Shown piece by piece: positions 8,740 to 54,631 of a stretch of 54,631 bases of DNA. The DNA is from Ignavibacterium sp. GTDB lineage: Bacteria > Bacteroidota > Ignavibacteria > Ignavibacteriales > Ignavibacteriaceae. The first letter of the stretch is position 1; every line of letters begins with the position of its first letter. The stretch is from the NCBI GenBank assembly GCA_032027145.1, contig JAVSMP010000001.1, positions 3,611,116 through 3,665,746 on the forward strand, written 5' to 3'. Under the pieces are notes generated by a model, which was not told where the DNA came from, made no database searches, and saw only the letters and a list, made by a program, of their open reading frames with translations. The position numbers and the translations under genes were made by a program.

Positions 8740-11724
8740 CTATCTGACTAAAACCATTTTTTTAGTCTGGTAAAATGATCCGGTACTGATGCTATAAAAG
8801 TAAATTCCGCTTGCAAGATTATTAGCATTAAACTGATACTCATGCTGCCCGGCTTTAAGTTCGGTATCTACCAGCGTACTAACTTCTTCACCAATTATGT
8901 TGAAAATCTTCAGAGTAACATTAGCTTCTTCAGGTAATTCAAACCGTATAGTTGTTGATGGATTAAACGGATTAGGATAATTCTGTGAGAGAGAAAAATT
9001 CTCAGGAATTTGCTGGAAAGTTTCCTCACCGATAGCAGAGATGTTTCCTGTACTATAAAGAACAAACAGAGAGTCATTACCACTATTATCTGTTGCTATA
9101 ATCGCAAGATCTGTTTTTCCATCAAGGTCAAAATCTGATGAAACAACACCACGCGGTATTCCTGTTGCAATTGATTGGAAACAATTTAGTTCAGGAGTAA
9201 AATTACCTGTACCATCGTTAAGGAAAACAGTCAATCCATGATTTTCTAAAGCCCAATTAACACTTGCAAAATCCAGGTCATCATCATTGTCGTAGTCAAG
9301 TCTAGCAAATCCTCTTCCATTTTCAACAGCCATAGGTTCAGGCTGGAAGTTGAAGTTTCCTTCATTGCGTAAAAGGTTACATTCATTATCCGAAAAGCCC
9401 GTTGTAATAAGATCATTGTCTGAATCATCGTCAAAATCACCTAAGATCACACTGTTTTGATATAAATAATTCCCTCCTACTCCATCTATTTGATGAAATG
9501 GGTTCCAACGTTCAAAGTAATAATGATCGCAGGCACTCGGGAAGACAGTAAATATGTTGAAAAACTCCCAACTCGTGAACCGTCCTGTTGGGTGTAAGCC
9601 TGCAATATCCACCAAATTATCTCCACCGATATCGTCAACAACAATCGACCAGGGACCCCAGGGAATAGTGTCAATCTCATTGCCGTAATGCTGGTAGTCA
9701 TAACAGAGTTGTCTGTCTCCAAGATTCATAACAACTCCTATGAATGATGAATAATAAGGAGAAGCATTAGGATGAGCGACAAAGATAACTTTGAGACTAT
9801 CATATAGCTGATAAGGCTCGGGGACAAGATGATATGTTCGTCCTTGAGTAATAATTTCACTTGATTCAGGAAATCCTCCTACTCCATCACCCCAATAGAC
9901 TTTAACCAGCGCAGAGTCACCACCAACGATCAGGTCAAGATAACCATCATCATCAAAGTTGCAGAAGGCGAGAGTTGTTGGTTTGAAGCCGACATTCAGA
10001 ATTCCTGATTGAAGGAAAGATCTTGACTCGGGAAGATTATGGAATAAAAGAACCTGTTCATTTTCATAATCTGCAATTGCTAATCCATCAGCCATAAGAT
10101 TATCAAACTTGCCGTATGCAATTGAATTACAAATGCTGGGAAGAGAAGTCCTGAAAACATCTTCAAACATTGGATTTGAACGCAGATTTCCTTCATCAGC
10201 TCCTCTTGTTGGTTTTGTTAAACTGCGCAAGTCGCCATCAACATCATCCACAATTCCGGGATAAGGAATTCCAACAATTTCCGGATCCTGCGCCTGGCAG
10301 TCAGAGAGATGAGGATATTCTTCACCTATGTCAAAATATAATTCCTTGAAAATTGAATTGGAATCCAGACCTGTTGCAGCTTGGTATGAACTAAGACTTG
10401 TGTACCGATTAGATCCGACTGCAGCAAGGTACACGGAGCCAGGTTGATTATAATCATAGTAGAATACATTGTAATCAGAAATCACTCCCGATATATTTCC
10501 ATTTTGTTTGAAGACTACTACAGCTTCAACGATAGGTAAACCTTCGCCGCTGCCGTAATCAAAAACAATGTTGTTCAAGACTTTAGATGAGTCAGAGCCT
10601 TGGCCTAGATAAATTCCATAACTTATTTGTACGCGATAAGGGTGCACAATAGTGTTGTGTATAATAGTTGCTTTTGTATTTGCTATGATTCCATAACGTC
10701 CTATAACTGGTAATCCCCAGCCTCCAACTGAAGCGCTTCCCGAGATCATGTTGTTCACAATCAACATTGATAATGGGTTACTGCTTAAATTGTCCACTTT
10801 GATTGCCCGGAAAGTAACGACTTGACCACTAGAGCCTCCTCCATTCTTGATGATGTTACTCTCGATAAGACCGGAATCGGCATAGACGATTATGCCATTT
10901 AGGCTTCCATAACCATTTGCATTATCCAGATAATTACGACGGACAATAGTTTTATGTGCTTTAATATTAATCCAATTTCCATAAGAACTACCGTGGTGAT
11001 GAGCATCGAGAAATTGATTATCCTCTATAATTACACCGCCACTGCTACCTCCTGCACCACCTATTTCAACAGAATTCATTAATTGTAAGAAAATATTTTG
11101 CCGTATTATTATTTCAGCAGTATTAGTACTTCCATTAACACCAGAATCAGTTCCGCGTGTAGCTCCTCCACCTGAATTTGAATTTCCGATAAATCTGCAT
11201 CCCTCAATAATAATGTCTTCAGTAATCGGATTATAGGAGAAAAATGCATCAATACGAAGAAGGAAATCAGCTCCGAACCCTGTCGAGTCATTATCCTCAA
11301 GCGTGATGTTTCGAATCGTAACGTGGTCGATTCTAACAAGCACAAGCGCCGTACTCGAAGAACTTGTCAGGTCAATTCGCAGTATGACATTCTCAACATT
11401 ACCACCGGCATTTTGATCCGGTTGAAATGTTATGCGATTATCTGCAGAAAGACCGGCAACTGCACTATCAAGAATCATAACTGAACTTACTCCACCATCA
11501 CGCATATAAATTCCCGGACGAATGTTCATAAAAACCGGACCGGAAACACCTCTTGCATTAAGTGCATCAGCAGCATTTTGCAGTGTGAGAAAATCTGGTG
11601 AAGAACCACCAACAGTGTAATTACCGTTTAACGGTTGGGCATTAAGTACGCAAATTGGTATGAGGAAGAAAAGAAGAAATAAATATTTCTTAACTCTCCA
11701 TTTGAAATTTAAACTGTATTTCAT
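8740..11724 (-). CDS. Large secreted beta-helix plus VCBS/FG-GAP protein with T9SS domain
   Basis: A 994-residue protein. The signal peptide is about 1-29 (ends VLNAQ). About 40-430 has N-rich beta-helix turns and the opening PDFLTLQNAADALNARG common in this class. About 550-890 has FG-GAP/VCBS-like segments (FDDDGYLDLIVGGD, DFDDDSDNDLITTG, DFDLDGKTDLAII) with Asp-rich calcium-loop signatures. The T9SS type-A domain starts at NYPNPFNPST and ends KKMVLVR. The ATG at 11724 has an AGGAGG ribosome binding site, which lies inside the end of a 34-codon upstream ORF. It is a probable surface adhesin or polysaccharide-interacting protein. Confidence 0.85.
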   Translation of the reverse strand: MKYSLNFKWRVKKYLFLLFFLIPICVLNAQPLNGNYTVGGSSPDFLTLQNAADALNARGVSGPVFMNIRPGIYMRDGGVSSVMILDSAVAGLSADNRITFQPDQNAGGNVENVILRIDLTSSSSTALVLVRIDHVTIRNITLEDNDSTGFGADFLLRIDAFFSYNPITEDIIIEGCRFIGNSNSGGGATRGTDSGVNGSTNTAEIIIRQNIFLQLMNSVEIGGAGGSSGGVIIEDNQFLDAHHHGSSYGNWINIKAHKTIVRRNYLDNANGYGSLNGIIVYADSGLIESNIIKNGGGSSGQVVTFRAIKVDNLSSNPLSMLIVNNMISGSASVGGWGLPVIGRYGIIANTKATIIHNTIVHPYRVQISYGIYLGQGSDSSKVLNNIVFDYGSGEGLPIVEAVVVFKQNGNISGVISDYNVFYYDYNQPGSVYLAAVGSNRYTSLSSYQAATGLDSNSIFKELYFDIGEEYPHLSDCQAQDPEIVGIPYPGIVDDVDGDLRSLTKPTRGADEGNLRSNPMFEDVFRTSLPSICNSIAYGKFDNLMADGLAIADYENEQVLLFHNLPESRSFLQSGILNVGFKPTTLAFCNFDDDGYLDLIVGGDSALVKVYWGDGVGGFPESSEIITQGRTYHLVPEPYQLYDSLKVIFVAHPNASPYYSSFIGVVMNLGDRQLCYDYQHYGNEIDTIPWGPWSIVVDDIGGDNLVDIAGLHPTGRFTSWEFFNIFTVFPSACDHYYFERWNPFHQIDGVGGNYLYQNSVILGDFDDDSDNDLITTGFSDNECNLLRNEGNFNFQPEPMAVENGRGFARLDYDNDDDLDFASVNWALENHGLTVFLNDGTGNFTPELNCFQSIATGIPRGVVSSDFDLDGKTDLAIIATDNSGNDSLFVLYSTGNISAIGEETFQQIPENFSLSQNYPNPFNPSTTIRFELPEEANVTLKIFNIIGEEVSTLVDTELKAGQHEYQFNANNLASGIYFYSISTGSFYQTKKMVLVR

Positions 11725-22662: not shown

Positions 22663-25600
22663 TTATTTACCTATATAATGTTTGTTATAATTTATCGTGT
22701 TTTTTAAGAGAATGGATAATAATATCATTTTGCTATGCTTTGGTAATGAAGGATAAATTAGGCGGGCAATTTTTCTTGATGAGATTAAATCAAGCAACAA
22801 CTTGCCAAACTCAACATTTATCTGTCCAATTTTTCTTTGATAGATATCAATAATATTGGCAATTATATTCTCTTGAATTTCAAAATCATATTGTTGTCGA
22901 ATAAAATTAATTCCGGTTCTAAAGTCTTGATTTACAAGTTCAATTTCGTGATTGGGTATTGATAATCTGGCAAATGCACTAAGAATATATAAACCAGAAT
23001 ATTCAGGATAACTTTCCATTGTTCTGCGACAGCCGCCTAGTAGTTGTCTTGCTAAGTCAATGTCTGTTACTTGTTCGAGAACCTCCCACCATTTTGTATG
23101 GTCATCAGACTGAACAATTTCTAAAAGAAGATCTGTGAAAATTGATTTTTCCAAATAAGTTAATAATTGCTCACGTATATAATTATTTCTATTATTTGGT
23201 GGCATTTGTGAGGAACTTCTTGAAACTTCTAAAATAGTTTTTAAAGCGGTTCTTCGTTTTTTCTCAATTTCATTGTAAGCAAAACGTACAATGTAGCCAA
23301 GACAACGTTCAAGCATATTTGCTCCATTTGCGTTAAATATTTGTGTCTCCGCTGTACGAATATAATCGGGAGTTTTATAACGACTTAAATAAGTTTTTAA
23401 ATTTGTCAAACATTCTTCATCCGATAATCGATTTAAAGTAACACTGTATTGGTTTGCATTCCAATCGATGGTATAATCTGAAATAATTCCAAGAATTGAA
23501 AGTCGATAAATCGATTTGTCTAAGTTATCATTTCGTGGAATTATTATTTGATGTGTTTGTCCAAGTTGCAAATTATTGTAAACTGGGTAAATGCTATTTG
23601 TTAGCAAGTTGTGAAGATTATTAATTTCGATATCAACCCCTTGAAAAGCATTCATATGAAAAAATAACATTCTATGAATATCGCCTTCTTGTCCAAATTG
23701 GGGCCATTGACCTTGTTGTTTTAGAATTCTCAAATCTTGTGCTGAAAGATTAATGTCTAAAAACTGATCTGCAATTGTAGAATTATCGTCAGAAAAAATT
23801 ATTATACAATAAGAATTATTCCTATCCCTTCCGGCTCTACCAGCTTCTTGATAAAAAGCTTCTAGTGAAGCAGGGATTCCAAAATGTACAGTATATCTAA
23901 CATTTGGTTTATCAATACCCATTCCGAATGCTTTTGTAGAAACTAAGACAGAAAATTCATTATTCTTAAAATCATTCTGAATTCTTCTTTTTTCTTTATT
24001 CCACTCTATTTCGCGTTGAACACGATGCAAATTCGGTTGAAAATATTTTGGTACTGAACCACTAAAAAATCCAACTTGTATATTTAACCTATTTTGTAAA
24101 TCGTCTCGTACTTGTGAACCGAACACATTGTTTGTCCAAGGGACAAAGACCAAACCAGATTTGGTGTTATTTCGATTCGGTTGAAATAATTCATTTTCAT
24201 TAGTATTAAGGACTTGCGGAATCGTATTCTGTAACAATCCTAATAAAATGTCTTTTTTGTTTGTGCTTGGTGTAGAATAAATATCGAATTGTAATTCATC
24301 TCTGTTAAATGTAGATGGATATATTTTAGCTTCTTCTTCGTCTATTCCAATTTCTCTTTGAACGTCAGTTAAGACAGAATAAGAAGCTGTTCCAGTTAAA
24401 GCTAATACAGTAGGTACATAGTTTTGGTATTTGCAATATATTTTTGCGGTCTTAGCTAAATTTAAATAGGACGTTCTGAAATCGTGACCCCACTCTGATA
24501 CACAATGTGCCTCATCAATTACAAGATAAGGTATAGAAAAAGAAACAGTCATCTGAATTAAGGAATTTCTAAAGTTGTTATCTTGAAATCTTTCGGGTGC
24601 AATAAATACTAAATGATATTTCCCATTCGACATTTCATTAACAACTTGCACTCTTTCTTCACTCGTTAATTCGCTATTGATAAAGCTAATATTATCAATA
24701 AGGTAATTGTTCATATTATCAGCTTGATCAAACATTAATGATCTTAGGGGATCAACGACTAATGATACGCCAGGCTGTAAAAGTGCAGAAAGTTGGTAAG
24801 TTAGAGATTTACCAGCACCAGTAGGCAACAATCCAATAACTGGTTTTAATGCCAGAGAACGTTTAAGGATTTCAATCTGACCTTCCCAATAGTCTTCTTT
24901 TCTGAAAATACTTTGCAGTAAAAATAAAAGATTCTTTTCCTTGCTTTCATTTATCTCATAAGGAAAAGGAGTTATAGAATTCACTTTAAAATTATTATCA
25001 AAATAGAATCTAGATGTAACGACAAACGCTAAGCAATTAACTTTCTCACGGATTTTTTGTTTTTCTTGAATTGCCCATTTCTTTTTTAATGAGATATAAA
25101 ACAATATCTCATTGTTACTGTTGGAATTGAAGTCTTCAAGTGATTTTGCAGTTCTATATTGAATTTCTGGTAAAGGTATATTATAAAGTGAACAAAAATT
25201 AGACAACCATACTTTTGAATCCTCAACTGCAAATTTTGCGTATGACACATCATCTTCAATGAAACAGAAATTCCAACATTCTTGATTAAAATTTAAGTAG
25301 CCTTTTTTTAAAGCCCATAATAACACTTTTTGGAATCTTGCTACAAGTAACGGAATTTGGATTAACTGATCTGAAAGAGATGAAAAAGCAATTGATTGAT
25401 CTTGATTTAATCGACCCAAATATTCACTATCAAATACTATTTGTTTCAGCGCATTAAGATTTTGATCATTCAAGCCCTCATTAATTTCCAATGCAGTAAT
25501 TTCAATAACTTTCCATCCATTGTTTCGTAATGAATTCCTTCTCTGATTGTCAAGATTCATTTGAACTTGATCTTGGAAATGTTGTAAGCCATCAATTTCA

Positions 25601-26241
25601 ATAACAACTTTGATATCTACGGTCTCAATTGCAAAATCAACTCTTTGACCAAAATAATTTTGAGCTTCATTAGCCGGAAGCATAGTTTCAATTTTTCTTT
25701 GTGGTTCAAAAAGTTGCGAACTATTCAGTCCGATAATATTGGGTAGTATTTGGCAATAAAATTTTTTCTCTTCTTGGCTGACAGTAATATTATTTTCAGA
25801 ATTATACTTCTTTTCAATTTCTTCAAATACTTTATTGGGATCAAACATTTGATCGGATAATATTAACGAGCCAGTAATGGATTTTATCCATTCAGCTTTA
25901 TCCCGATTGTTAGAGATGCTATCATTAAACTTTATTGCTCCTTGAACGGTCGATTCTTGAATATCAAAATCATTTCTAATAATTCTTGATAAATCTCTTT
26001 CTAAATTAGTTGAACAAAAGGTTGGGAATCCTCTACTTAGCAAATTTTCTAAAACATAGACTAATTGTCTTTCCTTTTGCGATAGATTATTTGTTGGAGA
26101 ATATGAAGATATTGTTTCTAATTCGAATGCAGATAAGGAACGAAATATATCTTTGTTTTTATAGTGGCTATAATTATCCATTTCTGGCAGTAAATCTTTT
26201 ATATAGCTTGTTATATAGCCACATTCTAATTTTTCAATCAT
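22663..26241 (-). CDS. PD-(D/E)XK-like nuclease fused to RecQ-family helicase
   Basis: A 1192-residue protein. About 195-255 holds a nuclease-like core with Asp202 (GQRVDFAI), E215-I-D217 followed by GLQHF, and GWKVIEITALEI, as in DUF559/Vsr-type endonucleases. A RecQ-like SF2 helicase follows: Walker A LLPTGAGKS (about 471-479), DEAH within LVIDEAHCVSEWGHDF (about 574-589), LALTGTAS (about 613-620), and motif V-VI STKAFGMGIDKP ... YQEAGRAGRD (about 768-806). A roughly 390-residue unknown C-terminal part follows, without clear RQC or HRDC domains. The gene sits between repeat copies 4 and 5. Nuclease-helicase fusions in such islands are often anti-phage proteins; the function is untested. Confidence 0.85.
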   Translation of the reverse strand: MIEKLECGYITSYIKDLLPEMDNYSHYKNKDIFRSLSAFELETISSYSPTNNLSQKERQLVYVLENLLSRGFPTFCSTNLERDLSRIIRNDFDIQESTVQGAIKFNDSISNNRDKAEWIKSITGSLILSDQMFDPNKVFEEIEKKYNSENNITVSQEEKKFYCQILPNIIGLNSSQLFEPQRKIETMLPANEAQNYFGQRVDFAIETVDIKVVIEIDGLQHFQDQVQMNLDNQRRNSLRNNGWKVIEITALEINEGLNDQNLNALKQIVFDSEYLGRLNQDQSIAFSSLSDQLIQIPLLVARFQKVLLWALKKGYLNFNQECWNFCFIEDDVSYAKFAVEDSKVWLSNFCSLYNIPLPEIQYRTAKSLEDFNSNSNNEILFYISLKKKWAIQEKQKIREKVNCLAFVVTSRFYFDNNFKVNSITPFPYEINESKEKNLLFLLQSIFRKEDYWEGQIEILKRSLALKPVIGLLPTGAGKSLTYQLSALLQPGVSLVVDPLRSLMFDQADNMNNYLIDNISFINSELTSEERVQVVNEMSNGKYHLVFIAPERFQDNNFRNSLIQMTVSFSIPYLVIDEAHCVSEWGHDFRTSYLNLAKTAKIYCKYQNYVPTVLALTGTASYSVLTDVQREIGIDEEEAKIYPSTFNRDELQFDIYSTPSTNKKDILLGLLQNTIPQVLNTNENELFQPNRNNTKSGLVFVPWTNNVFGSQVRDDLQNRLNIQVGFFSGSVPKYFQPNLHRVQREIEWNKEKRRIQNDFKNNEFSVLVSTKAFGMGIDKPNVRYTVHFGIPASLEAFYQEAGRAGRDRNNSYCIIIFSDDNSTIADQFLDINLSAQDLRILKQQGQWPQFGQEGDIHRMLFFHMNAFQGVDIEINNLHNLLTNSIYPVYNNLQLGQTHQIIIPRNDNLDKSIYRLSILGIISDYTIDWNANQYSVTLNRLSDEECLTNLKTYLSRYKTPDYIRTAETQIFNANGANMLERCLGYIVRFAYNEIEKKRRTALKTILEVSRSSSQMPPNNRNNYIREQLLTYLEKSIFTDLLLEIVQSDDHTKWWEVLEQVTDIDLARQLLGGCRRTMESYPEYSGLYILSAFARLSIPNHEIELVNQDFRTGINFIRQQYDFEIQENIIANIIDIYQRKIGQINVEFGKLLLDLISSRKIARLIYPSLPKHSKMILLSILLKNTINYNKHYIGK

Positions 26242-44093: not shown

Positions 44094-44720
44094 TTATCTC
44101 AACAACATCATCTTTTTTGTTGATATAAATGAACCAGCCTGCAAACGATAGATATAAACTCCGCTTGCAAGGTTTGATGCATCCCAGCTTACTTCATAAT
44201 ATCCCGGCTCTTGTTTTTCGTTTACAAGTGTTGCTGCTTCACTGCCGAGTATGCCATAAACTTTTAAGCTAACTTCTGAGAGGCTGGATACCTGATAACG
44301 GATTCTGGTTGTTGGATTAAATGGATTTGGATAGTTCTGCTCAAGCTTAAATTCTTTTGGACCTGTGTAGCTGAAGATAAAACTTTTCATCATCATCAGT
44401 CCGTTTGAATCTGATATCATAAAATCAATTGTATCTTTTTTATTGATTGGTGCGTTTCTGTTTACATCAAATGTAAAGATTGCATTTGCCTCCGCCTTTG
44501 CCTCAATCAATTCTATTGTCTCCATCTCTTTGCTGAAACTAAGTGCTGAAGATTTCCTGGTGAGAACGATGTTCACATTCGTTGCAGGACTTGTCTCCGA
44601 GATGTTTGAGACGGTTAGGGTTATTTCATTTCCTTTCGTTCCCGGTGGTATTTCGTAAATGGTTTGTGCGAATGAATAATATGTTATTGCCGATGCGATA
44701 ATTAAAATTTTTATTAGCAT
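44094..44720 (-). CDS. Short secreted T9SS protein, module gene C (copy 1)
   Basis: A 208-residue protein: signal peptide about 1-18, a beta-rich domain at about 20-120 (GTKGNEITLTVSNISETSPA, IDFMISDSNGLMMMKSFIF), then the T9SS type-A domain from NYPNPFNPTT to KKMMLLR. It differs from the copy at 49795-50421 by one residue (Glu instead of Asp before VSLKVYG) and about two bases in 627. It is the last gene of module A-B-C and shows recent duplication or gene conversion. Confidence 0.85.
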   Translation of the reverse strand: MLIKILIIASAITYYSFAQTIYEIPPGTKGNEITLTVSNISETSPATNVNIVLTRKSSALSFSKEMETIELIEAKAEANAIFTFDVNRNAPINKKDTIDFMISDSNGLMMMKSFIFSYTGPKEFKLEQNYPNPFNPTTRIRYQVSSLSEVSLKVYGILGSEAATLVNEKQEPGYYEVSWDASNLASGVYIYRLQAGSFISTKKMMLLR

Positions 44721-44855: not shown

Positions 44856-47021
44856 CTACGGAACATTTAACTGAATCTCAACCAAATTATTTACAGAAAT
44901 GTCCTGCTGTTTATCCTGACTTACACTTCCGGATGTTGCTCTGAAGTTCAGGCTTTTTGGCAGAAGTTCTTTTGTTGTTTCTCCATTTGTATTCGTTAAA
45001 CCAATATCTCTCCACGCACCTGAATAATATTTTGTGCCTGCACCTGATAATGGCTGTCCATTTGCCTTTGTTACTTTGACTGTGCACAATACTGTTGAGA
45101 AAGTTACAGTACTGTTTGTGCTTATATCCTGCTGTTTGTCAAGCGAAACATACTCGTAAGTCATTCTAAAACTGTAGTTGATTGGTAGAAGCTCTTTGTG
45201 TGTAACTCCATTCTGAGTTGTTCCGAATGTTCGCCACGCACCTGCATAATATTGTACTGTTCCCTGGTCTATCAAAGTACCTGTGCTGTTATGCAATTCT
45301 ACTGCTGCATTCACTGTCTGGAAAACCACAGTTGGATTAACAGAAATATCCTGCTGTTTGTCCTGGTTTCCATATTCGTAAGTCATTCTAAAGCTGTAAT
45401 TGATTGGAAGAAGTTCTTTGTTTGCTACTCCGTTTTGTGTTGTTCCGAATGTTCTCCACGCACCTGCATAATATTGAACTGTTCCTTGATCTATTAAATT
45501 ACCTGAACTGTTACGCAGCTCTACCGAAGCATTAACTGTATGAAAAGTGTATGTGTTGTTATGTGCAGTAATGTTATGCACAGTCTGGTTTGCATACTCG
45601 TAGAACATTCTGATGCTTACTGTTGGTTTTGTTGTTGTTATTGTGAATGTTCCATCTCCATTGTTAACTGCATCTTTCCATTTGCTCTCATAGTACATTA
45701 CATTACTTGCAGGTATTTGGTTACCCAAACTGTTTTTTAAACTTACAACAAGATTTGGATTTGCTGGCGGCTCTGGCAGTCTGTCTAAAATATACTGTGC
45801 ATTCCAGTAAAGAAATTTCCAGCCTTCTATTGTTACAAAACGAGGGTCTGTGTTTAGTGAGTCTTTATAAACATTATCTACTAAATCCTGGAATTCTTTT
45901 ACCTGAACTCTGCAAGCAAGTGAGTCGCCATTTTGTAAGTTGGTTTTAGCTATTGTTAAAATGTTTTTTAGTTCGTTGGAGAAAGTTAAATCGCCGAGCC
46001 AGGTGTAGTTAAAAACGCTATCAACATAATTATTTAAGTTATCTAATAAATCGATAGTCGGTTTCAACGAATCTGGTTGAGCTGGTACGAACAATAAAAG
46101 AAATTGCTTTTTCGAGCGATATGTTAGTGAGTTTGTATCAGATATACTCAATTGTTTTAATAAATTAATAAAACTTGGTTCAATATACCTTTTAGATTCA
46201 AAACCATAATTCAATACTTCGAATGGATTAGGCAAATATTTCGCTCTCAGCGTGTCATTGTTTTCATTCTGTAATGCGAAGATACTTCTTTCTGGTTGAC
46301 CATCTTTATCTATTATACCCAATTCAAAAAAGTAGTCATATCTTTGTTCACCTAAATTGTTTTCAAAGTAAGTATCTAATAAAATCGTTCCCTCATTAGA
46401 AAAAATATTTAGATCATATGCAAGCATAATTACCTGTGAGGTTGTACTTGATGAAACAATTTTGTTCATTATTATTGATTTAACCTCTTCTTTATATCTG
46501 CTATCATTCCCATACCAAGCAAGCAAGTTAATGAATAACTCAGGGGAATCATTATATCCAGCAATAACAAAACTATAGTTATCGTAAATTCCAATTTCTG
46601 CAAGTGTTCGTATTGCAAGTAAGCGCGTTAAATAAGTTGCATGATTTGCTATGATTTTCATTTTTTCAACTGCCATATTATCCCCAAGTAACCCTCTAAA
46701 GAAAATATTTGTATATACTTTATACCAGTATGCAGAATTTTCACTTACCGATAAGGATGTATCGATCTCAGAGTTTAAATTATCTAATAGAAATTCTGCA
46801 TCTGATTGAATATAATATAAATACTTAACGGAAGCAGGATAAAGAAGATTTTGAGATTCAAGGTCAACAGTAACGATAATCTGTTTTATGCTATCAACAG
46901 AAAGATTACTCATCATATGTAAACTTCCAAGATCTATTTTGCCTCTCAACCACATATTTTGTCCATAGGAAATTGTTGAGATCAATGTTATTAATAATAT
47001 CATTTTAATTATAATTTTCAT
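44856..47021 (-). CDS. Secreted repeat protein, module gene B (copy 1)
   Basis: The ATG at 47019-47021, six bases after GGAG, is preferred over 47039 because it begins the signal peptide (MKIIIKMILLITLISTISYGQ). About 25-400 is helical and HEAT-like (TYLTRLLAIRTLAEIGIYDN). The rest is four beta-type repeats of about 75 residues with the core TVQYYAGAWRTFGTTQNG, KELLPINYSFRMTYEY and KQQDIS. No T9SS domain is present. The copy at 50557-52455 has one repeat fewer. It may be a cell-surface repeat protein. It lies 28 bp after gene A. Confidence 0.75.
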   Translation of the reverse strand: MKIIIKMILLITLISTISYGQNMWLRGKIDLGSLHMMSNLSVDSIKQIIVTVDLESQNLLYPASVKYLYYIQSDAEFLLDNLNSEIDTSLSVSENSAYWYKVYTNIFFRGLLGDNMAVEKMKIIANHATYLTRLLAIRTLAEIGIYDNYSFVIAGYNDSPELFINLLAWYGNDSRYKEEVKSIIMNKIVSSSTTSQVIMLAYDLNIFSNEGTILLDTYFENNLGEQRYDYFFELGIIDKDGQPERSIFALQNENNDTLRAKYLPNPFEVLNYGFESKRYIEPSFINLLKQLSISDTNSLTYRSKKQFLLLFVPAQPDSLKPTIDLLDNLNNYVDSVFNYTWLGDLTFSNELKNILTIAKTNLQNGDSLACRVQVKEFQDLVDNVYKDSLNTDPRFVTIEGWKFLYWNAQYILDRLPEPPANPNLVVSLKNSLGNQIPASNVMYYESKWKDAVNNGDGTFTITTTKPTVSIRMFYEYANQTVHNITAHNNTYTFHTVNASVELRNSSGNLIDQGTVQYYAGAWRTFGTTQNGVANKELLPINYSFRMTYEYGNQDKQQDISVNPTVVFQTVNAAVELHNSTGTLIDQGTVQYYAGAWRTFGTTQNGVTHKELLPINYSFRMTYEYVSLDKQQDISTNSTVTFSTVLCTVKVTKANGQPLSGAGTKYYSGAWRDIGLTNTNGETTKELLPKSLNFRATSGSVSQDKQQDISVNNLVEIQLNVP

Positions 47022-47049
47022 TTTTATCTCCGTTATCAAATTTTATTTG

Positions 47050-49401
47050 TTAAGGATTACACGGAACGAACTTACAGTCATAATAATATGGAGGACCATA
47101 CAAACCAATAATTCTAAGATCACACCACCAACTTTGTTTACTTGCCCAAAGTATAATTCTTTCTTTTATTTTCTCATATTCTAATGATGCAACTCTATCT
47201 GCTTCTATTTCAGCTTTAGAATGACCTCCGACATCGTATCCCATTAAATGCGACATATTATTAAAATAATATTCCAAGTCAAATTTTAAATTATCTCTAA
47301 TATCAAGTTCATTTTTAATTAATGCATCTTCAGGGCATTGATAAATTTCACTCTTTTCGATTTTTTTAGATTTCAACCTTCCAAATCCTCCCACACCATT
47401 CCAGAAAAATGGTAAGAGTCTTTTAATTTGCTCAACATGTACATTTTCGTGAGCGACAATGCCTGTCGAAAAATAATATTTGTATAAAGGTTTCATTCCT
47501 ATTCTTTCAGGTCCAATAATCCAGTAATTGAGCGTTATCATAACTTTGTTATAATCAGAACAATCCTTGATATGTTGAGTTAACAGTGTAGGATTCGACC
47601 CATCACCTAAATCAATGTAACCACATTGTTGCGGTTGGTTAGGACAGTGAGAAGAAAATAAAGGAACACGAAAATTTTCAAGACTAAAATTCCAGTAATG
47701 ATGGCCTGGGTCATTTTTATCAAGACAAACCGTCACTTTCATATCATCAAGCAAATTATATACAGGTGGTGCACCGATACTTGGCATAATATAGGTCTGG
47801 CCAAATATAACCGTGTCACAACCTGATGGTAACTCATAATTACATACAGCACCTGTATTTGCTGTGTGGGGAGTTCCTTGTTTATCTACCCATTGCCATG
47901 GATCGTTTTCACCTAAAACAGATATGGTCCCAACATTTTCAAAAATTGGTGGGCTATAATTATTACACACCACTATCTCCTCATCACACTCATCTTGTAT
48001 AACCACAACATCACCGTAACCTTCAATCTCCTGTCCCGGATTACCGATTGAAGCATCAGGAATAATTGTTTGGATATAATCATCAATTTCAACTGTAATG
48101 CTTTCTTTATATTCTGATTTTAGAATTTGATTAGTGATTGTTCTTGAGGCACTATTACCACCAACAGATGTATTTACTTTTATTCTTATTACAACACTAT
48201 CATAAGGTACTGATGCCGCTGTTATAACTTTAAATCCATTGCTTACTCCCTGTAAATTATCTGCTATATTGCCTGTGCTTGGATCAAGTAGAATTCCAAA
48301 TTCATTTCCACCTGTTATCTCAACATTAAACAACTGTTCTGCAGGAAAATCCAGAAGTTCATTATAAGCTGTCAACCATTTACAGTTTATTGTTGCTGTA
48401 TCTCCAGGCTCGTAAATCTGTTTATCCATCCCTACTATTATATAACCTCCTTCATCTGGCGGGTCTTCATTATATTTAACAGAAAAACTTACTTCTACGG
48501 GTGCAATATCAAAATCATTTGAAGAACATCTTATCGTTACTATACCAGGAGTTAAACTATCTGGCTGCAATCCATCAGCCTTATACTTAATTGAATAATT
48601 AGTAATTCCTACTCCATCTTCATCATAAAGATTTGTTATTGATGTTCCATATTGTTCAGGCTCTGCAACTGTTCCAGGATAATATAAATTTCCGTATTCC
48701 TGTCCCTGAACTATTGCAACATTGAATTTAATCCCTTCAGGATACGCACCACCATATTTATCTAATTGACAATTACCAGAACTTTCCTGAAAGTCTAATA
48801 CAAACTCTATCTCTCTGCTATGGTAATGTAGAAGTGTATCCTCTTCTGTTATGGAAGTTATGATGAAAGTTCGGATCTCTATTCTTGAATGATAATTAAT
48901 GGTTTCTTGTCCATCAAATACTGACATTATTATTTCTGTTCCTGCGGGGACATCCCTACTTATTCTCATTAAATACTTTGAATTATTGTGATATAAACCA
49001 TTTGGGTAATCCTGTACATAATTATACCAACCTGTTGCACCAAGATCTGAGCCAGTGACGCCACTTAAAGAACTGCCCATATATTGTATCGGCACATAAC
49101 TTCCAGTGGAGTTATCATAAAATCCTCCATATGTAAAATATGCATATTCATCTGACTGTTGAATTGTTAAATTGTAGCTTTTGTTTGGATCAAGTATATA
49201 TGTTCTTCGCTGTAATCCAGGACCATATCTGTTATCCTGAAAGTTGAACATCTGTTGATAGGGGTCGGGTGCGAAGTACATATTATTCCAGATTATCTGC
49301 CAGGGATTTAGTCTATCATAAGAACTAATCCATGGACCACAGGGTGTATATTGAGGTGCAGGATAGTAGTAAGGAAGATTTTTTTGCGGATTTATCTCCA
49401 C
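47050..49401 (-). CDS. Secreted Ig-like protein with HExxH motif, module gene A (copy 1)
   Basis: From a GTG at 49401 there are 783 residues, but the same frame runs upstream to 49500 and encodes a signal peptide (LLAFTFFVFIFSSHINAQ) with no start codon. The only good ATG (49551-49553, after GGAG at 49563-49566) is out of frame across a heptamer repeat. The mature protein has Ig/filamin-like domains (about 180-460) and near the C-terminus AHENVHVEQI (His651-Glu-Asn-Val-His655), a zinc-metallopeptidase-type HExxH, with EIEADRVASLEYE downstream. The gene may be phase-variable and currently off. No T9SS domain. Confidence 0.75.
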   Translation of the reverse strand: MEINPQKNLPYYYPAPQYTPCGPWISSYDRLNPWQIIWNNMYFAPDPYQQMFNFQDNRYGPGLQRRTYILDPNKSYNLTIQQSDEYAYFTYGGFYDNSTGSYVPIQYMGSSLSGVTGSDLGATGWYNYVQDYPNGLYHNNSKYLMRISRDVPAGTEIIMSVFDGQETINYHSRIEIRTFIITSITEEDTLLHYHSREIEFVLDFQESSGNCQLDKYGGAYPEGIKFNVAIVQGQEYGNLYYPGTVAEPEQYGTSITNLYDEDGVGITNYSIKYKADGLQPDSLTPGIVTIRCSSNDFDIAPVEVSFSVKYNEDPPDEGGYIIVGMDKQIYEPGDTATINCKWLTAYNELLDFPAEQLFNVEITGGNEFGILLDPSTGNIADNLQGVSNGFKVITAASVPYDSVVIRIKVNTSVGGNSASRTITNQILKSEYKESITVEIDDYIQTIIPDASIGNPGQEIEGYGDVVVIQDECDEEIVVCNNYSPPIFENVGTISVLGENDPWQWVDKQGTPHTANTGAVCNYELPSGCDTVIFGQTYIMPSIGAPPVYNLLDDMKVTVCLDKNDPGHHYWNFSLENFRVPLFSSHCPNQPQQCGYIDLGDGSNPTLLTQHIKDCSDYNKVMITLNYWIIGPERIGMKPLYKYYFSTGIVAHENVHVEQIKRLLPFFWNGVGGFGRLKSKKIEKSEIYQCPEDALIKNELDIRDNLKFDLEYYFNNMSHLMGYDVGGHSKAEIEADRVASLEYEKIKERIILWASKQSWWCDLRIIGLYGPPYYYDCKFVPCNP

Positions 49402-49466: not shown

Positions 49467-49499
49467 CGAGAAGCGAGAAACGAGAAACGAGAAACGAAA
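49467..49499. repeat. Heptanucleotide tandem repeat (CGAGAAA), four units plus partial
   Basis: Units are at 49467-49473 (CGAGAAG), 49474-49480, 49481-49487 and 49488-49494 (CGAGAAA), then CGAAA. It lies in the signal-peptide coding region of gene A. Because 7 is not a multiple of 3, each unit gained or lost shifts the frame; all three frames of TTTCTCG are stop-free. Confidence 0.9.
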
Positions 49500-49562
49500 G
49501 CTATTGCTTTTTGTGTGCTTGTCAAGTGATTTTTTTTCTAAACTTTTTCCCATAAAGTTTTA

Positions 49563-49794: not shown

Positions 49795-50421
49795 TTATCT
49801 CAACAACATCATCTTTTTTGTTGATATAAATGAACCAGCCTGCAAACGATAGATATAAACTCCGCTTGCAAGGTTTGATGCATCCCAGCTTACTTCATAA
49901 TATCCCGGCTCTTGTTTTTCGTTTACAAGTGTTGCTGCTTCACTGCCGAGTATGCCATAAACTTTTAAGCTAACATCTGAGAGGCTGGATACCTGATACC
50001 GGATTCTGGTTGTTGGATTAAATGGATTTGGATAGTTCTGCTCAAGCTTAAATTCTTTTGGACCTGTGTAGCTGAAGATAAAACTTTTCATCATCATCAG
50101 TCCGTTTGAATCTGATATCATAAAATCAATTGTATCTTTTTTATTGATTGGTGCGTTTCTGTTTACATCAAATGTAAAGATTGCATTTGCCTCCGCCTTT
50201 GCCTCAATCAATTCTATTGTCTCCATCTCTTTGCTGAAACTAAGTGCTGAAGATTTCCTGGTGAGAACGATGTTCACATTCGTTGCAGGACTTGTCTCCG
50301 AGATGTTTGAGACGGTTAGGGTTATTTCATTTCCTTTCGTTCCCGGTGGTATTTCGTAAATGGTTTGTGCGAATGAATAATATGTTATTGCCGATGCGAT
50401 AATTAAAATTTTTATTAGCAT
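49795..50421 (-). CDS. Short secreted T9SS protein, module gene C (copy 2)
   Basis: 208 residues, identical to the 44094-44720 protein except Asp for Glu before VSLKVYG. Same signal peptide, beta domain and NYPNPFNPTT T9SS domain. Near-identity at DNA level while the A and B genes differ widely suggests gene conversion or a strong selective need for the shared C protein. Confidence 0.85.
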   Translation of the reverse strand: MLIKILIIASAITYYSFAQTIYEIPPGTKGNEITLTVSNISETSPATNVNIVLTRKSSALSFSKEMETIELIEAKAEANAIFTFDVNRNAPINKKDTIDFMISDSNGLMMMKSFIFSYTGPKEFKLEQNYPNPFNPTTRIRYQVSSLSDVSLKVYGILGSEAATLVNEKQEPGYYEVSWDASNLASGVYIYRLQAGSFISTKKMMLLR

Positions 50422-50556: not shown

Positions 50557-52455
50557 CTACGGAACATTTAACTGAATCTCAACCAAACTATTTAATCCAA
50601 TGTCCTGCTGTTTATCCTTATTTACATTTCCCGATGTTGCTCTGAAGTTCAGGCTTTTTGGCAGAAGTTCTTTTGTTGCTTCGCCGTTTGTATTCGTTAA
50701 ACCAATGTCTCTCCACGCACCTGAATAATATTTTGTGCCTGCACCTGATAATGGCTGTCCATTTGCTTTTGTTACTTTTAATGTACAAAGAACTGTTGAG
50801 AATGTTACTGTGCTGTTTGTGCTTATATCCTGCTGTTTGTCAAGTGGTACATACTCGTAAGTCATTCTAAAACTGTAATTGATTGGGAGAAGCTCTTTGT
50901 GTGCAACTCCATTTTGTGTTGTTCCGAATGTTCTCCACGCACCTGCATAATATTGAACTGTTCCTGCATCCATTAAATTGCCTGAACTGTTACGCAGCTC
51001 TACCGAAGCATTAACTGTATGAAAAGTGTATGTGTTGTTATGTGCAGTAATATTATGCACAGTCTGGTTTGCATACTCGTAGAACATTCTGATGCTTACT
51101 GTTGGTTTTGTTGTTATTACTGTAAATGTTCCATCTCCATTGTTAACTGCATCTTTCCAGCTCCCCTCATAATACTTTACATTACTTGCAGGTATTTGGT
51201 TTCCTAAACTATTTTTTAGGTTTACTAATAAGTTTGGGTTTGCTGGCGGTTCCGGCAGTCTGTCTAAAATGTACTGTGCATTCCAGTAAAGAAATTTCCA
51301 GCCTTCTATTGTTACAAAACGTGGGTCTGAGTTGAGTGAGTCCTTGTAAACATTATCCACTAAATCCTGGAATGCTTTTACCTGAACTCTGCACGCGAGT
51401 GAATCTCCGTTTTGCAAGTTTGTTTTGGCAGTTGTTAAAATGTTTTTTATTTCGTTGGAGAAAGATAAATCGCCGAGCCAATAATACATTATCGATTGAC
51501 TAACATACGAACTTGTAGTGTCTATTATTTCTTTAATTGATATGGTTGAATCTGGCTGAAAAGGGGTCCCTGGGCAAATATATTCTTCATACACTTTATT
51601 TAACCTCTTAAATTCAGAATAACTACCTTCATCATTCAACCAGGATATTACATAAACATAATTTGATGGTGTTCTATATTCAGTCAGTAATTTTTCATAT
51701 GCAATTTGTTTACAAATTGTATCTGTGTCGTTTACCAAAATATATTTTAGCAGATTAGCTACTGTTTCAAAATCTCCATAGTGGGTATATTTTCTAATGA
51801 TATTGAATTTGATTACATCATTATCTTCTTGATGATATCTGTTAATCATTAGTTGAGATAATTCAGCCATATAATAATCTTCAAGCCAACTCATAGCCTT
51901 ATATCTTACTTCCCAATATCTGTCAAGTTGAATGAATTCAAGTAGTCTATTTTTTGCCAGGAGAGAATAATTTGGAAAACTAAGTAAACGACTCCATAAT
52001 TGAATGCATAATTCCAAATTGCTTTTACTCATTGAATTATTTGCACAATAATCTAAATAATCAATTTTTGAAAAATCGCCTAAATCAAATAATTCATCAA
52101 TCAAATAAAGTTTTTTGTAAACTGTATCTATTCCTTGATAAGTTTTGATCTGAAGCGTATCAAAGAGTGCAAGGCTATAACTTAAAGTTTCTTGCGATTG
52201 CAATACTTTCATTGCTTCTAAATATGAAATCCTAGAATTAAGGCTTTGATTCCAGAAATTATCTCTTAGAATTGGTAAAGCTTCGGTTATATTATTATAA
52301 ATAATATCTATTGTTGCATTATCTACAACAGTCCAATCATCAGAATATAAATCATTGATAATTGAATCAATTTCAGTTTGGTTTAAATTTTGAGCCAATA
52401 TAATCCCAGTTAATTGAGTGATAATAAAAATTATCATTTGAATTTTATTTTTCAT
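50557..52455 (-). CDS. Secreted repeat protein, module gene B (copy 2)
   Basis: A 632-residue protein. The signal peptide is about 1-21 (ends ILAQ). About 25-330 is helical and HEAT-like (SRISYLEAMKVLQSQETL, EVRYKAMSWLEDYYMAEL) and much diverged from copy 1. The last 290 residues, starting near GDLSFSNEIKNILTTAKTNL, are close to identical to copy 1 and hold three of the roughly 75-residue beta repeats. So the two proteins have a variable N-terminal and a conserved C-terminal half. It starts 19 bp after the A-copy stop. Confidence 0.8.
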   Translation of the reverse strand: MKNKIQMIIFIITQLTGIILAQNLNQTEIDSIINDLYSDDWTVVDNATIDIIYNNITEALPILRDNFWNQSLNSRISYLEAMKVLQSQETLSYSLALFDTLQIKTYQGIDTVYKKLYLIDELFDLGDFSKIDYLDYCANNSMSKSNLELCIQLWSRLLSFPNYSLLAKNRLLEFIQLDRYWEVRYKAMSWLEDYYMAELSQLMINRYHQEDNDVIKFNIIRKYTHYGDFETVANLLKYILVNDTDTICKQIAYEKLLTEYRTPSNYVYVISWLNDEGSYSEFKRLNKVYEEYICPGTPFQPDSTISIKEIIDTTSSYVSQSIMYYWLGDLSFSNEIKNILTTAKTNLQNGDSLACRVQVKAFQDLVDNVYKDSLNSDPRFVTIEGWKFLYWNAQYILDRLPEPPANPNLLVNLKNSLGNQIPASNVKYYEGSWKDAVNNGDGTFTVITTKPTVSIRMFYEYANQTVHNITAHNNTYTFHTVNASVELRNSSGNLMDAGTVQYYAGAWRTFGTTQNGVAHKELLPINYSFRMTYEYVPLDKQQDISTNSTVTFSTVLCTLKVTKANGQPLSGAGTKYYSGAWRDIGLTNTNGEATKELLPKSLNFRATSGNVNKDKQQDIGLNSLVEIQLNVP

Positions 52456-52474: not shown

Positions 52475-54514
52475 TTATTTCGGTAAGCTTAATATTAATT
52501 TTTTAATCTCAGTTTTATATTTATCGATAACTTTTTTTGCTATCGCATTATGAGTATTTATTTCATTTTTCCTATAGTTTTCAATTTCTTTTGGTGTGCC
52601 ATCCTTTTTACCCCATACTTTAAATTGAAACTTTATACTTTCTTTTTCAAAATATGAGAACCTTTTTTCAAAATTACTTTTCATCTCATTTACGACATCA
52701 TTTAATTCACTATATTTGTTACACGTAACATCCAACTTTGAATAATCTAAATAATCAAAATCTTTATTCACAACGTTAAAAATCTCATTGACATAATTTC
52801 TCTTATGTTGAAACTCATGTTCCCACGCAAGTTCAATCGGATAAAAAGGTGAACTTGGGTTTTCATTTGTAAAATAGTCTAAGAATATATCAAGATCAGA
52901 ATATAATTGTAACAATGCACGTAAATTTTGTGGTACTTTGGTTTTTAATTCTGTGGTATTGTATAAAATTGTATATCCTTGATCAACAATCACATCTTCA
53001 CAAGCTGTTACAATGGCTCTAAGTGTCATTAAATCATTTTTAATTCCAAATTGTATCACATTAGCATTCTCATCGCAACAATTTTCGATTTCTATTGGTA
53101 AGAAAAGTTTTTTCTCGTTTTCACTCCATAGCATATAAGTAATACCAGATACATTGTTGCATTTATTTTTACCGTCCGTTCCATCTGGAAAGTCCATTAT
53201 TTCAATGTTCGGTTTTTTACCTGCATTGTTTTCAGTACACTTTGGCAATGTCGCACAAACATTCCCCACCACCACATTGGCATCTCCAGTAACTACGGAG
53301 TATAAATCACCCAGAAAACAATATTCGCCAATAACACCGCCATCAATAAAACTTTTAGCTTCTCTACGGTTATCACTTGCAGAAGATTTTTTTATCTGGT
53401 TTTCACTTTTTCTACTCTTAAAATTATTATTTAACAAACTACTTGATGACATTCCTTCAATAACTCCAACTCTTAACTTAACAGTTCCCTCAACTGCTCC
53501 TGTATCTGCAATAAAGTAAAAAGGCTGCAATGCTGCATCAACATAAACCCCGCTGTCTGTTGCAGTTTTTATCATTCCAAGAGCACAACCATCAAGCATC
53601 CCAATCTCAAAAGTCTGCTCAATAGGAAAATCACTTAAGCTGCCATCCGGGTTTTTCAGTTTTGGAATTATCTGGGCTGTATCTCCTGGTGCAATTGTTT
53701 CAGGGACAATGTTTACAACCAATAAGTTTGTAAAAGTCATTTCAATTGGTTCTATTGACGGGTCAGATGTGCTAACACGAATCTTAATCTCACTATCAGC
53801 CTGAATCTGATCATTAGTTCTTAAAATAATTTGGTCCAAACATCCGTAATTATGTGGCAGATCGTTTAATACTTGTCCAGAATCACTTGTTGTGTTATTT
53901 ACTAAATTACCAAAATCATACCCCATAATAATCTCAACACTGTATTTAGTAGTATCTGGTAGATTTAGAGAATAACCGAATTGTGGAGAAGCACATACGT
54001 CTAGTATAATTTCATTATTTCTTTTTAGATTATGATCATATGTATAGTCAAATAATGTAAAAACTGGATTTACAACAAATACATTAAAAGTATAAACTTC
54101 GTCAGAGTAATCTGTAACAATTATTTTTACAAATGCTGTATCCGTTGGTTTTGTCTCATTAAATTTTATATATGTACATTCACCATCAGGCTACAAAAAC
54201 AAATTATCAGTTGTAAGGAAGTATTCAGTACAATCAGAACAACTGCCTGTTTCAGAAGTTGGAGGAACATAACCTAAATATATCTGAACATAATCACTGC
54301 CTTCTACAACATTTATTGATTTTGTAACAGTTGGCAAAAAACAAAAGTTGTAAAAATCTTCACCATACCATACGACACTAGTATCACAAAACGCACGTAG
54401 ACACTGCATTTCACCAAAAGTCTGTTGATAATAGTAAGGATAATAAATATGATTGCAGTAATAAGAGTTAACCGGGTCATCAGAGATAACAATTGTTTGC
54501 GGATTTATCTCCAC
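52475..54514 (-). pseudogene. Secreted HExxH protein, module gene A (copy 2), with in-frame amber codon
   Basis: The frame begins at a GTG (54514) and, as in copy 1, continues upstream into a signal peptide (LLSFNVNAQ) and the heptamer repeat. An in-frame TAG at 54191-54193 ends a 107-residue product. The frame is then open for 572 more codons to 52475. The downstream part has Ig-like segments and WEHEFQHKRN, an HExxH motif at the same relative place as copy 1. The stop makes it a probable pseudogene, unless the amber codon is read through or is a sequence error. The C-terminal part differs much from copy 1. Confidence 0.65.
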
Positions 54515-54579: not shown

Positions 54580-54631
54580 CGAGAAGCGAGAAACGAGAAA
54601 CGAGAAACGAGAAACGAGAAACGAGAAACGA
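54580..54631. repeat. Heptanucleotide tandem repeat (CGAGAAA), seven or more units
   Basis: Units start at 54580 (CGAGAAG), then six perfect CGAGAAA units to 54628, and the tract runs off the window edge. It lies in the signal-peptide region of gene A copy 2, as in copy 1, but with at least three more units. Confidence 0.9.

What the first reader, a model, noticed from the sequence alone, without database searches (positions are those of the whole stretch)
54580..54631. Same heptamer tract, longer, at the start of the second A copy
The paralogue has at least seven units at the equivalent place against four in copy 1, and the tract reaches the window edge. Length difference between duplicates indicates slippage in the lineage, and two independently switching copies would give combinatorial surface variation.
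Basis: partly seen in the sequence, partly recalled or inferred. Interest (0 to 1): 0.65.

Follow-up and report, generated by a model that had tools for sequence, protein, structure and literature searches.

The report
Repeat switch on swappable secreted proteins
A seven-letter DNA repeat in the export-signal part of a secreted protein's gene appears to switch the gene on and off as its length changes, and the same genes also seem to trade their working ends with spare copies elsewhere in the chromosome, giving an uncultured bacterium a two-level system for varying what it secretes.

Summary
The tract is real: seven full TTTCTCG/CTTCTCG units plus three bases at window 54580-54631, against four in copy 1. 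The window ends where a one-contig genome ends, so copy 2's start codon is missing and its state cannot be read; its body also has an in-frame TAG. The contig's other end holds a third module with eight units. Copies 1 and 3 show the mechanism: the same ATG and leader precede the repeat; eight units are in frame, four are not. Sixteen such loci in seven genomes fall in frames 0/1/2 as 2/8/6, and the repeat unit differs between species at the same place. Beyond the finding, the module is a recombination site: 1,987 bp of module 1 (end of A, start of B) are identical to a cassette at 896 kb that lacks leader and signal peptide, one of six such pairs found. I read it as a phase-variable, cassette-swapping secreted effector system, working like Opa (switch) and MafB (cassettes). 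Toxin-immunity function is inferred: no family match for A or B; A's fold inconclusive, B's front an alpha solenoid.

The parts
54580..54631 (-). Heptamer tract of A2 (sense unit TTTCTCG, last unit CTTCTCG), 7 full units + 3 bases, cut by the contig end
   Evidence: contig end
54194..54631 (-). A2, 5' part: FLVSRFS repeats from the tract, signal-peptide-like LLAFTFCAFLLSFNVNAQ, conserved VLIKEKVEINPQ, variable stretch; ends at in-frame TAG (54191-54193)
   Evidence: signal peptide by eye
52478..54190 (-). A2, 3' part after the TAG: PGDTA stretch and C-terminal domain with HEFQH
50557..52455 (-). B2: signal-peptide-like start, variable alpha-solenoid N-terminus, conserved element, C-terminal repeats
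   Evidence: fold
49795..50421 (-). C2: small secreted protein with type IX sorting tail (PF18962, E 7e-9)
49551..49553 (-). ATG of the A1 leader (MGKSLEKKSLDKHTKSNS...), GGAG upstream
49467..49494 (-). Heptamer tract of A1, 4 units: body out of frame with the ATG (45-aa product)
47050..49401 (-). A1 body (HENVH, EIEAD), ORF as called from an internal GTG; open to its end although out of frame with the leader
46003..47989 (-). 1,987-bp block identical to the cassette at C1:895977-897963 (end of A1 + start of B1)
45769..46002 (-). Conserved B element: 15 mismatches in 234 bp against the same cassette; element found at 9 places in this genome; probable right-hand recombination zone
44856..47039 (-). 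B1
44094..44720 (-). C1: type IX sorting tail (PF18962)

Best explanation
The tract is the ON/OFF switch of a secreted, polymorphic effector-like gene (A). A is translated from an ATG whose leader encodes a lysine-rich start; the (TTTCTCG)n tract encodes FLVSRFS repeats just before the hydrophobic core of the signal peptide. Because 7 is not a multiple of 3, gain or loss of a unit moves the rest of A out of frame (three units restore it); the repeat reads as the same heptapeptide in each frame, so only the exit frame changes. Shown: the tract, its place, the frames of copies 1 and 3. Inferred: slippage as the cause. Second level: the C-terminal part of A and the N-terminal part of its neighbour B form a unit that is exchanged with cassettes lacking A's leader and signal peptide, through conserved flanks (shown by sequence identity; direction not shown; that the cassettes are silent is inferred, since their A-ends have an in-frame ATG). 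Function, inferred: the A-end is a variable exported enzyme or toxin and B its cognate partner, most likely an immunity or inhibitor protein, so that a population carries mixed weapons, mostly switched off.
For: Copy 3 (8 units) is in frame for 787 aa; copy 1 (4 units) stops after 45 aa, and its body frame has no ATG, GTG, TTG or CTG before KEKV, only two ATT. Sixteen leader-tract-body loci in seven genomes: frames 0/1/2 = 2/8/6; in 4 of 4 genomes with two such copies the two differ in frame. Same place, different unit: TTTCTCG, CTTCTCG, TCACTAC, TTCCGTC/TTTCCGT and an 8-mer TTCAATCA (up to rotation). Bodies stay open although out of frame: 12 of 14 out-of-frame loci are open for 467 codons or more from KEKV (11 of these 12 to the end of the stretch held), and A1 against the G232 copy, both out of frame, has dN 0.175, dS 1.07 over 396 codons. 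Leader peptide M-x-[KR]-S-L...LDK alike in 12 of 16 loci from two genera, one more with LYK. Cassettes: 1,987 bp without mismatch between A1/B1 and the 896-kb copy, then 15 mismatches in 234 bp of conserved element; six A-end+B-start pairs found outside the expressed modules, one split by a transposase pair. A-end and B-start similarity go together (Mantel r 0.85, p 1e-4, 15 non-redundant of 20 hand-picked pairs). B-start model is an alpha solenoid (pLDDT 79; top Foldseek rows HEAT/ARM/alphaRep, best E 2.4e-3, none at 0.001).
Against: No reads or second isolate: variation within a clone not seen. Only 2 of 16 loci are in frame, one with a body of 8 codons (P for <=2 of 16 at 1/3 is 0.059, for <=1 of 14 full-length 0.027; copies within G433 are not independent), so many may be dead or started otherwise: in the body frame some copies have a TTG in the leader (G433, G430 C47, G232) or a start after the tract (G434, G432, G290 2428k). 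No family above its cut-off in A1-A3 or B1-B3 and no defence-family match; A-end model poor (pLDDT 58.8) with no PDB row at E<=0.001. Pairing of A-end and B-start is expected from linkage alone. A1-A3, B1 and B2 lack the type IX tail (B3 is cut), so the route beyond the periplasm is unknown. G461's A has neither such a tract nor HExxH.
Confidence: 0.6

Rival explanations
1. Antigenic variation of a secreted or surface protein against phages, predators or neighbours, not a weapon: the cassettes vary what is displayed and B is a co-displayed partner.
For: Switch plus cassette exchange is the layout of surface antigens such as Opa, pilin and vlsE (recalled; Opa passage); a type IX cargo (C) is in the module; B has an alpha-solenoid front and C-terminal repeats.
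Against: The variable part of A keeps HExxH in 17 of 20 hand-picked pairs (3 of 20 have another domain), with a gluzincin-like E..[A/C/N][D/N] in 9 of 9 members of one cluster, three of them near-duplicates of others: this suggests catalysis. A-end and B-start change kind together.
Confidence: 0.25
2. Dying gene family: the tracts are neutral microsatellites in pseudogenes, or frame errors of draft assemblies.
For: 14 of 16 loci are out of frame; A2 has an in-frame stop; the contig breaks at repeats; the same heptamer lies between genes in G079 and G372.
Against: Bodies remain open for hundreds of codons and dN/dS is 0.16 between two out-of-frame copies; copies differ by whole units; a tract recurs at the same spot in seven genomes with different units; 500 bp upstream of the A1 and A3 tracts are identical.
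Confidence: 0.13
3. The frame is read by another start or by recoding, not by slippage: e.g. the TTG at ATG+28 serves frame 1, or ribosomes shift in the repeat.
For: Five of six G433 copies are in frame 1 with exact arrays of 2 to 6 copies, and frame 1 from the TTG reads as a signal peptide (by eye); several frame-1 and frame-2 copies have an ATG, GTG or TTG in the body frame in the leader or after the tract.
Against: A1 and G430 C12 have no ATG, GTG or TTG in the body frame before KEKV, and G290 2428k has no TTG at +28 in its open frame; all three frames occur among close copies; starts after the tract would lose most of the signal peptide.
Confidence: 0.12

Closest known systems
Opa proteins of Neisseria (CTCTT repeats)
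   Same: Short repeat, unit not a multiple of 3, in the part of the gene that encodes the leader peptide; frame-shifting by unit number (PMC3960869, passages read).
   Different: Unit is 7 (or 8) bases and is replaced by other units in related species; the end of the gene is exchanged together with the start of the next gene. No sequence relation was tested or is claimed.
MafB/MafI polymorphic toxins of Neisseria
   Same: Conserved front, variable C-terminus, partner gene directly downstream, C-terminus+partner cassettes thought silent, cassette and full-length gene with identical ends (PMC4287609, passages read).
   Different: Partner B is a large two-part protein with a signal-peptide-like start, and the exchanged unit ends inside it; a repeat switch lies in the signal peptide; the cassettes' A-ends have an in-frame ATG (the Maf ones called silent have no initiation codon); no shared family in the scans.
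TANFOR polymorphic toxins of Bacteroidetes
   Same: Large proteins with variable C-terminal domains beside immunity genes and type IX cargo (PMC7073777, passages read).
   Different: No TANFOR match for A1-A3 in the NCBIfam scan up to E 0.1. In that paper's main text 'phase vari' occurs 0 times and 'cassette' once.

Membership tests
Translational phase variation by simple sequence repeat | Repeat of a unit not divisible by 3 between start codon and gene body | tested here: met
   A1 and A3: ATG, 48-base leader, flank, 4 or 8 heptamers, body
Translational phase variation by simple sequence repeat | Unit number differs and goes with the frame | tested here: met
   A1 4 units frame 2, A3 8 units frame 0; 16 loci 2/8/6
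Translational phase variation by simple sequence repeat | Reversible length change within a clone | not testable with these tools
   one consensus sequence per genome; no reads
Opa-type leader-peptide repeat | Repeat lies in the signal-peptide coding region | tested here: met
   FLVSRFS repeats followed by LLAFTFFVFIFSSHINAQ; signal peptide judged by eye, no predictor on hand
Polymorphic toxin system | Conserved front with exchangeable C-terminal domains and standalone cassettes | tested here: met
Polymorphic toxin system | Recognised toxin domain | tested here: inconclusive
   no Pfam, NCBIfam or PADLOC family for A; HExxH motif only; fold search on a weak model; lysozyme-like motifs by eye in a third kind, hhalign probability 0.4%
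Polymorphic toxin system | Adjacent cognate immunity gene | tested here: inconclusive
   B-start co-varies with A-end, but linkage alone would give that; protection not testable
MafB | MafB N-terminal conserved domain | tested here: inconclusive
   no family above cut-off in A1-A3 (Pfam, NCBIfam); it was not checked which model defines MafB
TANFOR toxins | TIGR02542 domain at the N-terminus | tested here: inconclusive
   no match up to E 0.1; not checked that this model is in the library; the A1 and A2 pieces given lacked the first residues
Type IX secretion cargo | C-terminal sorting domain on A and B | tested here: not met
   PF18962 absent from A1-A3, B1, B2 and present in C1, C2; B3 is cut by the contig start
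Gluzincin metallopeptidase | HExxH plus downstream glutamate and matching fold | tested here: inconclusive
   HExxH in 17 of 20 hand-picked pairs, E..[A/C/N][D/N] in 9 of 9 of cluster I (trait of the family recalled); fold not settled

The most novel reading that the evidence does not exclude
An Ignavibacteriota lineage maintains by selection a slippage switch at a fixed spot in the signal peptide of its effector genes while the repeat sequence itself is replaced over evolution (several distinct 7-mers and one 8-mer), and couples this switch to recombination with arrays of effector-end + partner-start cassettes whose right-hand border lies inside the partner gene: a two-layer (ON/OFF x identity) arsenal in which effector and antidote are swapped as one piece.
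Probability: 0.4. Interest if true: 0.78.

Novelty: new variant of a known kind. Interest (0 to 1): 0.62.

Why it matters
Repeat-driven phase variation and cassette exchange are best known (my recollection) from host-adapted pathogens, where immune escape is the usual reason given. Finding both on one locus in an uncultured Ignavibacteriota lineage (habitat not looked up here) would suggest that competition or predation can drive such systems too. The recurrence of different repeat units at one position would be a natural experiment on how contingency loci arise and are renewed. Much of it could be tested on existing long reads.

Tried and rejected
Other heptamer sites as a genome-wide family: rejected. 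The pattern occurs only at the three A genes in this genome and in 4 of 395 phylum genomes, own included. In G079 (two sites) and G372 it lies between genes; in G298 it follows the ATG of an unrelated gene whose end looks like a type IX tail by eye.

Cassettes shared with G433 as proof of lateral transfer: rejected for the general case, since the flank of the locus is itself 92% identical to G433, like the shared cassettes (92.1 and 95.7%); one cassette (HEEHH) has dS 0.08 against 0.39 for another, suggestive only.

Third kind of A-end as a lytic transglycosylase: the motif register fits by eye (KES...DWGLxQ...NWKTNI.xG), but Pfam, PDB sequence search and hhalign gave no support. PDB sequence search of the HExxH kind: 0 matches up to E 10. 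Foldseek and VIA rows for the A-end are weak throughout (best E 1.4, best Z 4.3) and nothing is concluded from them. The viral collection gave no relatives of these two A-end kinds; BFVD gave B no match at E<=0.001. Sigma-70-like promoter before A1: 1 found, 0.7 expected. The first Mantel run held one pair in a wrong frame (g290_2433); one search is the corrected run. The first core-gene comparison used a gene that looks laterally acquired; one search replaced it. My notes say 14 mismatches beside the identical block; the alignment string gives 15.

After re-checking I lowered the main confidence from 0.62 to 0.60 and raised the other-start rival from 0.10 to 0.12, because several out-of-frame copies do have a possible start in the body frame.

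Literature: no paper holds 'Ignavibacteri' with 'phase variation'; one holds it with 'polymorphic toxin' and by its title concerns another superfamily (listing only). Searches were seen as listings; passages were read in PMC4287609, PMC7073777 and PMC3960869. Most subscription papers are not in that library.

Full report
1. The observation. The array at 54580-54631 is real (7 full units plus 3 bases; TRF 7.4 copies, 97%) and far beyond chance (45-base exact run against at most 18 in 1,000 simulations). Copy 1 has four units at 49467-49494. The window is the last 54.6 kb of a single-contig genome of 3,665,746 bases. What lies right of it is not in the assembly; the other end of the contig begins inside a third module (L004), in its B gene at the start of the C-terminal repeats. 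If the chromosome is circular, which was not shown, the break lies between copy 2's tract and B of module 3.

2. Anatomy. On the minus strand each module reads A, B, C. A3 has an ATG, a leader MGKSLEKKSLDKHTKSNS, then repeats of FLVSRFS encoded by eight heptamers, then LLAFTFFVFIFSSHINAQ, in one frame of 787 aa. A1 has the same leader and flanks (no mismatch over the 500 bp before the tract, 3 by 550) but four heptamers; its ATG product is 45 aa, and the body frame has only two ATT codons as possible starts before KEKV. A2 lacks its 5' end and has a TAG after 146 codons, followed by 571 open codons. The leader and first residues (to EKVEINPQ) are alike, while A1 and A2 are 30 and 26% identical to A3 in alignment (A2 given only after its stop). 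C1 and C2 carry the type IX sorting tail; A1-A3, B1 and B2 do not.

3. The tract across species. A DNA search with the A1 leader hit 11 of 80 genomes of the family, 24 places; a profile of A hit 17 of 80. I read 15 of the 24 places plus the A gene of G232: 16 loci in 7 genomes with leader ATG, tract and body. The 9 dropped: own A2 (5' missing), G430 C80 (contig end), G433 2525k (leader truncated), two pieces at the G298 gene, and weak hits in G232:3385k, G431, G411 and G461. Of the 17 genomes with A-profile matches, the 5' ends were examined in seven (own, G430, G432, G433, G290, G232, G461); G461's gene has no such tract; the other ten were not examined. Frames relative to the ATG: 0 in 2 (own A3; G433 2528k, whose body stops after 8 codons), 1 in 8, 2 in 6. 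The two copies differ in frame in own, G430, G290 and G432; in G433 five of six are in frame 1. Units, up to rotation: TTTCTCG (own, G433, G430), CTTCTCG (G434), TCACTAC (G290), TTCCGTC and TTTCCGT (G432), the 8-mer TTCAATCA (G232). The leader peptide is alike in 13 of 16 loci (one with LYK for LDK) and differs in G432 and G232, while the (Q)VIIKEKVEINP-like sequence after the tract recurs in all seven genomes, so the place is the same while the unit is not. Of the 14 out-of-frame loci 12 are open for 467 codons or more from KEKV; the others are G433 383k (8 codons) and G434 (8 codons, end of the contig piece). A1 and the G232 copy, both out of frame, have dN 0.175 and dS 1.07 over 396 codons: selection has kept the protein although this sequence does not express it from the ATG. 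The in-frame share is low (P 0.059 for <=2 of 16; 0.027 for <=1 of 14 with full bodies; copies are not independent), and several out-of-frame copies have another possible start in the body frame. Four of five CP053447.1 loci ('Ignavibacteriota bacterium isolate IGN3') matched G433 stretches with no mismatch (30,001 bases; the fifth was not placed in the four stretches tried).

4. Cassettes. The A profile found C-terminal copies elsewhere in the own genome. At C1:548-568 kb lies an array, and at 896 kb a single copy, of units made of the end of A (from MIIETKIDYPTN..., no signal peptide, no tract, but an in-frame ATG) and the start of B. I found six A+B pairs, one of them split by a transposase pair (HTH_Tnp_1, rve), and two B parts without an A-end; a further 47-bp scrap of the left element lies at 66.6 kb. 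Of the eight B parts, five end at ...YILDRLPKP and one at ...LPEP, two run on into the C-terminal repeats. Window 46003-47989 is identical over 1,987 bp to the 896-kb copy; to its right the conserved B element has 15 mismatches in 234 bp, and to its left the alignment ends after four bases. This is what exchange through conserved flanks leaves; which way it went cannot be told. The B element was found at 9 places in this genome, 10 in G433, 4 in G430, 1 in G434, 0 in G431 and G432.

5. What the proteins may be. I picked 20 A-end/B-start pairs by hand (own, G433, G290; fragments and other genomes left out). Seventeen have HExxH; one cluster of 9 (three near-duplicates) also has E..[A/C/N][D/N] 70-92 residues on, as in gluzincins (trait recalled). 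Three have another domain with lysozyme-like motifs by eye, and their B fronts form a cluster of their own, the one scanned having a TIG domain. A-end and B-start similarity go together (r 0.96 for all 20, 0.85 for 15 non-redundant, 0.79 for 13 HExxH pairs; p 1e-4); linkage alone would do this. B-start is predicted as an alpha solenoid (pLDDT 79; top Foldseek rows HEAT/ARM/alphaRep, best E 2.4e-3; Pfam HEAT_2 at E 0.24 in B2, below cut-off). The A-end model is weak and settles nothing. So the toxin/antidote reading rests on layout and motifs, not on a recognised domain.

6. Comparison. The switch works like Opa's leader-peptide repeats (PMC3960869); the cassettes work like mafB-CT/mafI (PMC4287609); polymorphic proteins beside type IX cargo recall TANFOR toxins (PMC7073777). 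No such family was matched by sequence. The searches found no report for Ignavibacteriota. Hence new variant of a known kind.

7. Verdict. Observation confirmed; the slippage reading is well supported for copies 1 and 3 and cannot be tested for copy 2; the surface-antigen reading is one of two live options; the cassette exchange is the more striking part.

Noticed in passing
window 22663-26241: DEAD-box helicase with DUF559 domain, 93% identical over its whole length in G290 (another genus) but with only short matches in G433 and G430 and none in G232: looks laterally acquired.
   Followed up: partly
L032 9925-12844 (G298): Gene for a 969-aa protein (type IX tail by eye) with about 13 TTTCTCG units right after an ATG that is out of frame with the body; a TTG at 9935 is in frame: the same kind of possible switch on another gene.
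   Followed up: partly
L004 4060-5594: Gene upstream of module 3 (Ycf48/BNR-like) ends before its type IX tail, which lies just downstream; the G433 counterpart is one 514-aa frame with a tail by eye.
   Followed up: no
L065 3188-4470: Transposase gene pair inserted in a cassette, splitting its A-end.
   Followed up: partly
window 45124-45546: 222-bp tandem repeat encoding 74-aa repeats of B1's C-terminus; B2 lacks one of them, and the contig starts at this region of B3.
   Followed up: no
window 47050-49401 and L056 6951-9344: A1 and the A gene of G232 (another genus) are 74% identical over the first 396 codons but 35% over the C-terminal domain, so front and end have different histories.
   Followed up: partly
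L033 8124-8173, L034 8510-8547, L035 8751-8771: The same or related heptamer runs between genes in G079 and G372, so the repeat is also a plain microsatellite elsewhere.
   Followed up: partly
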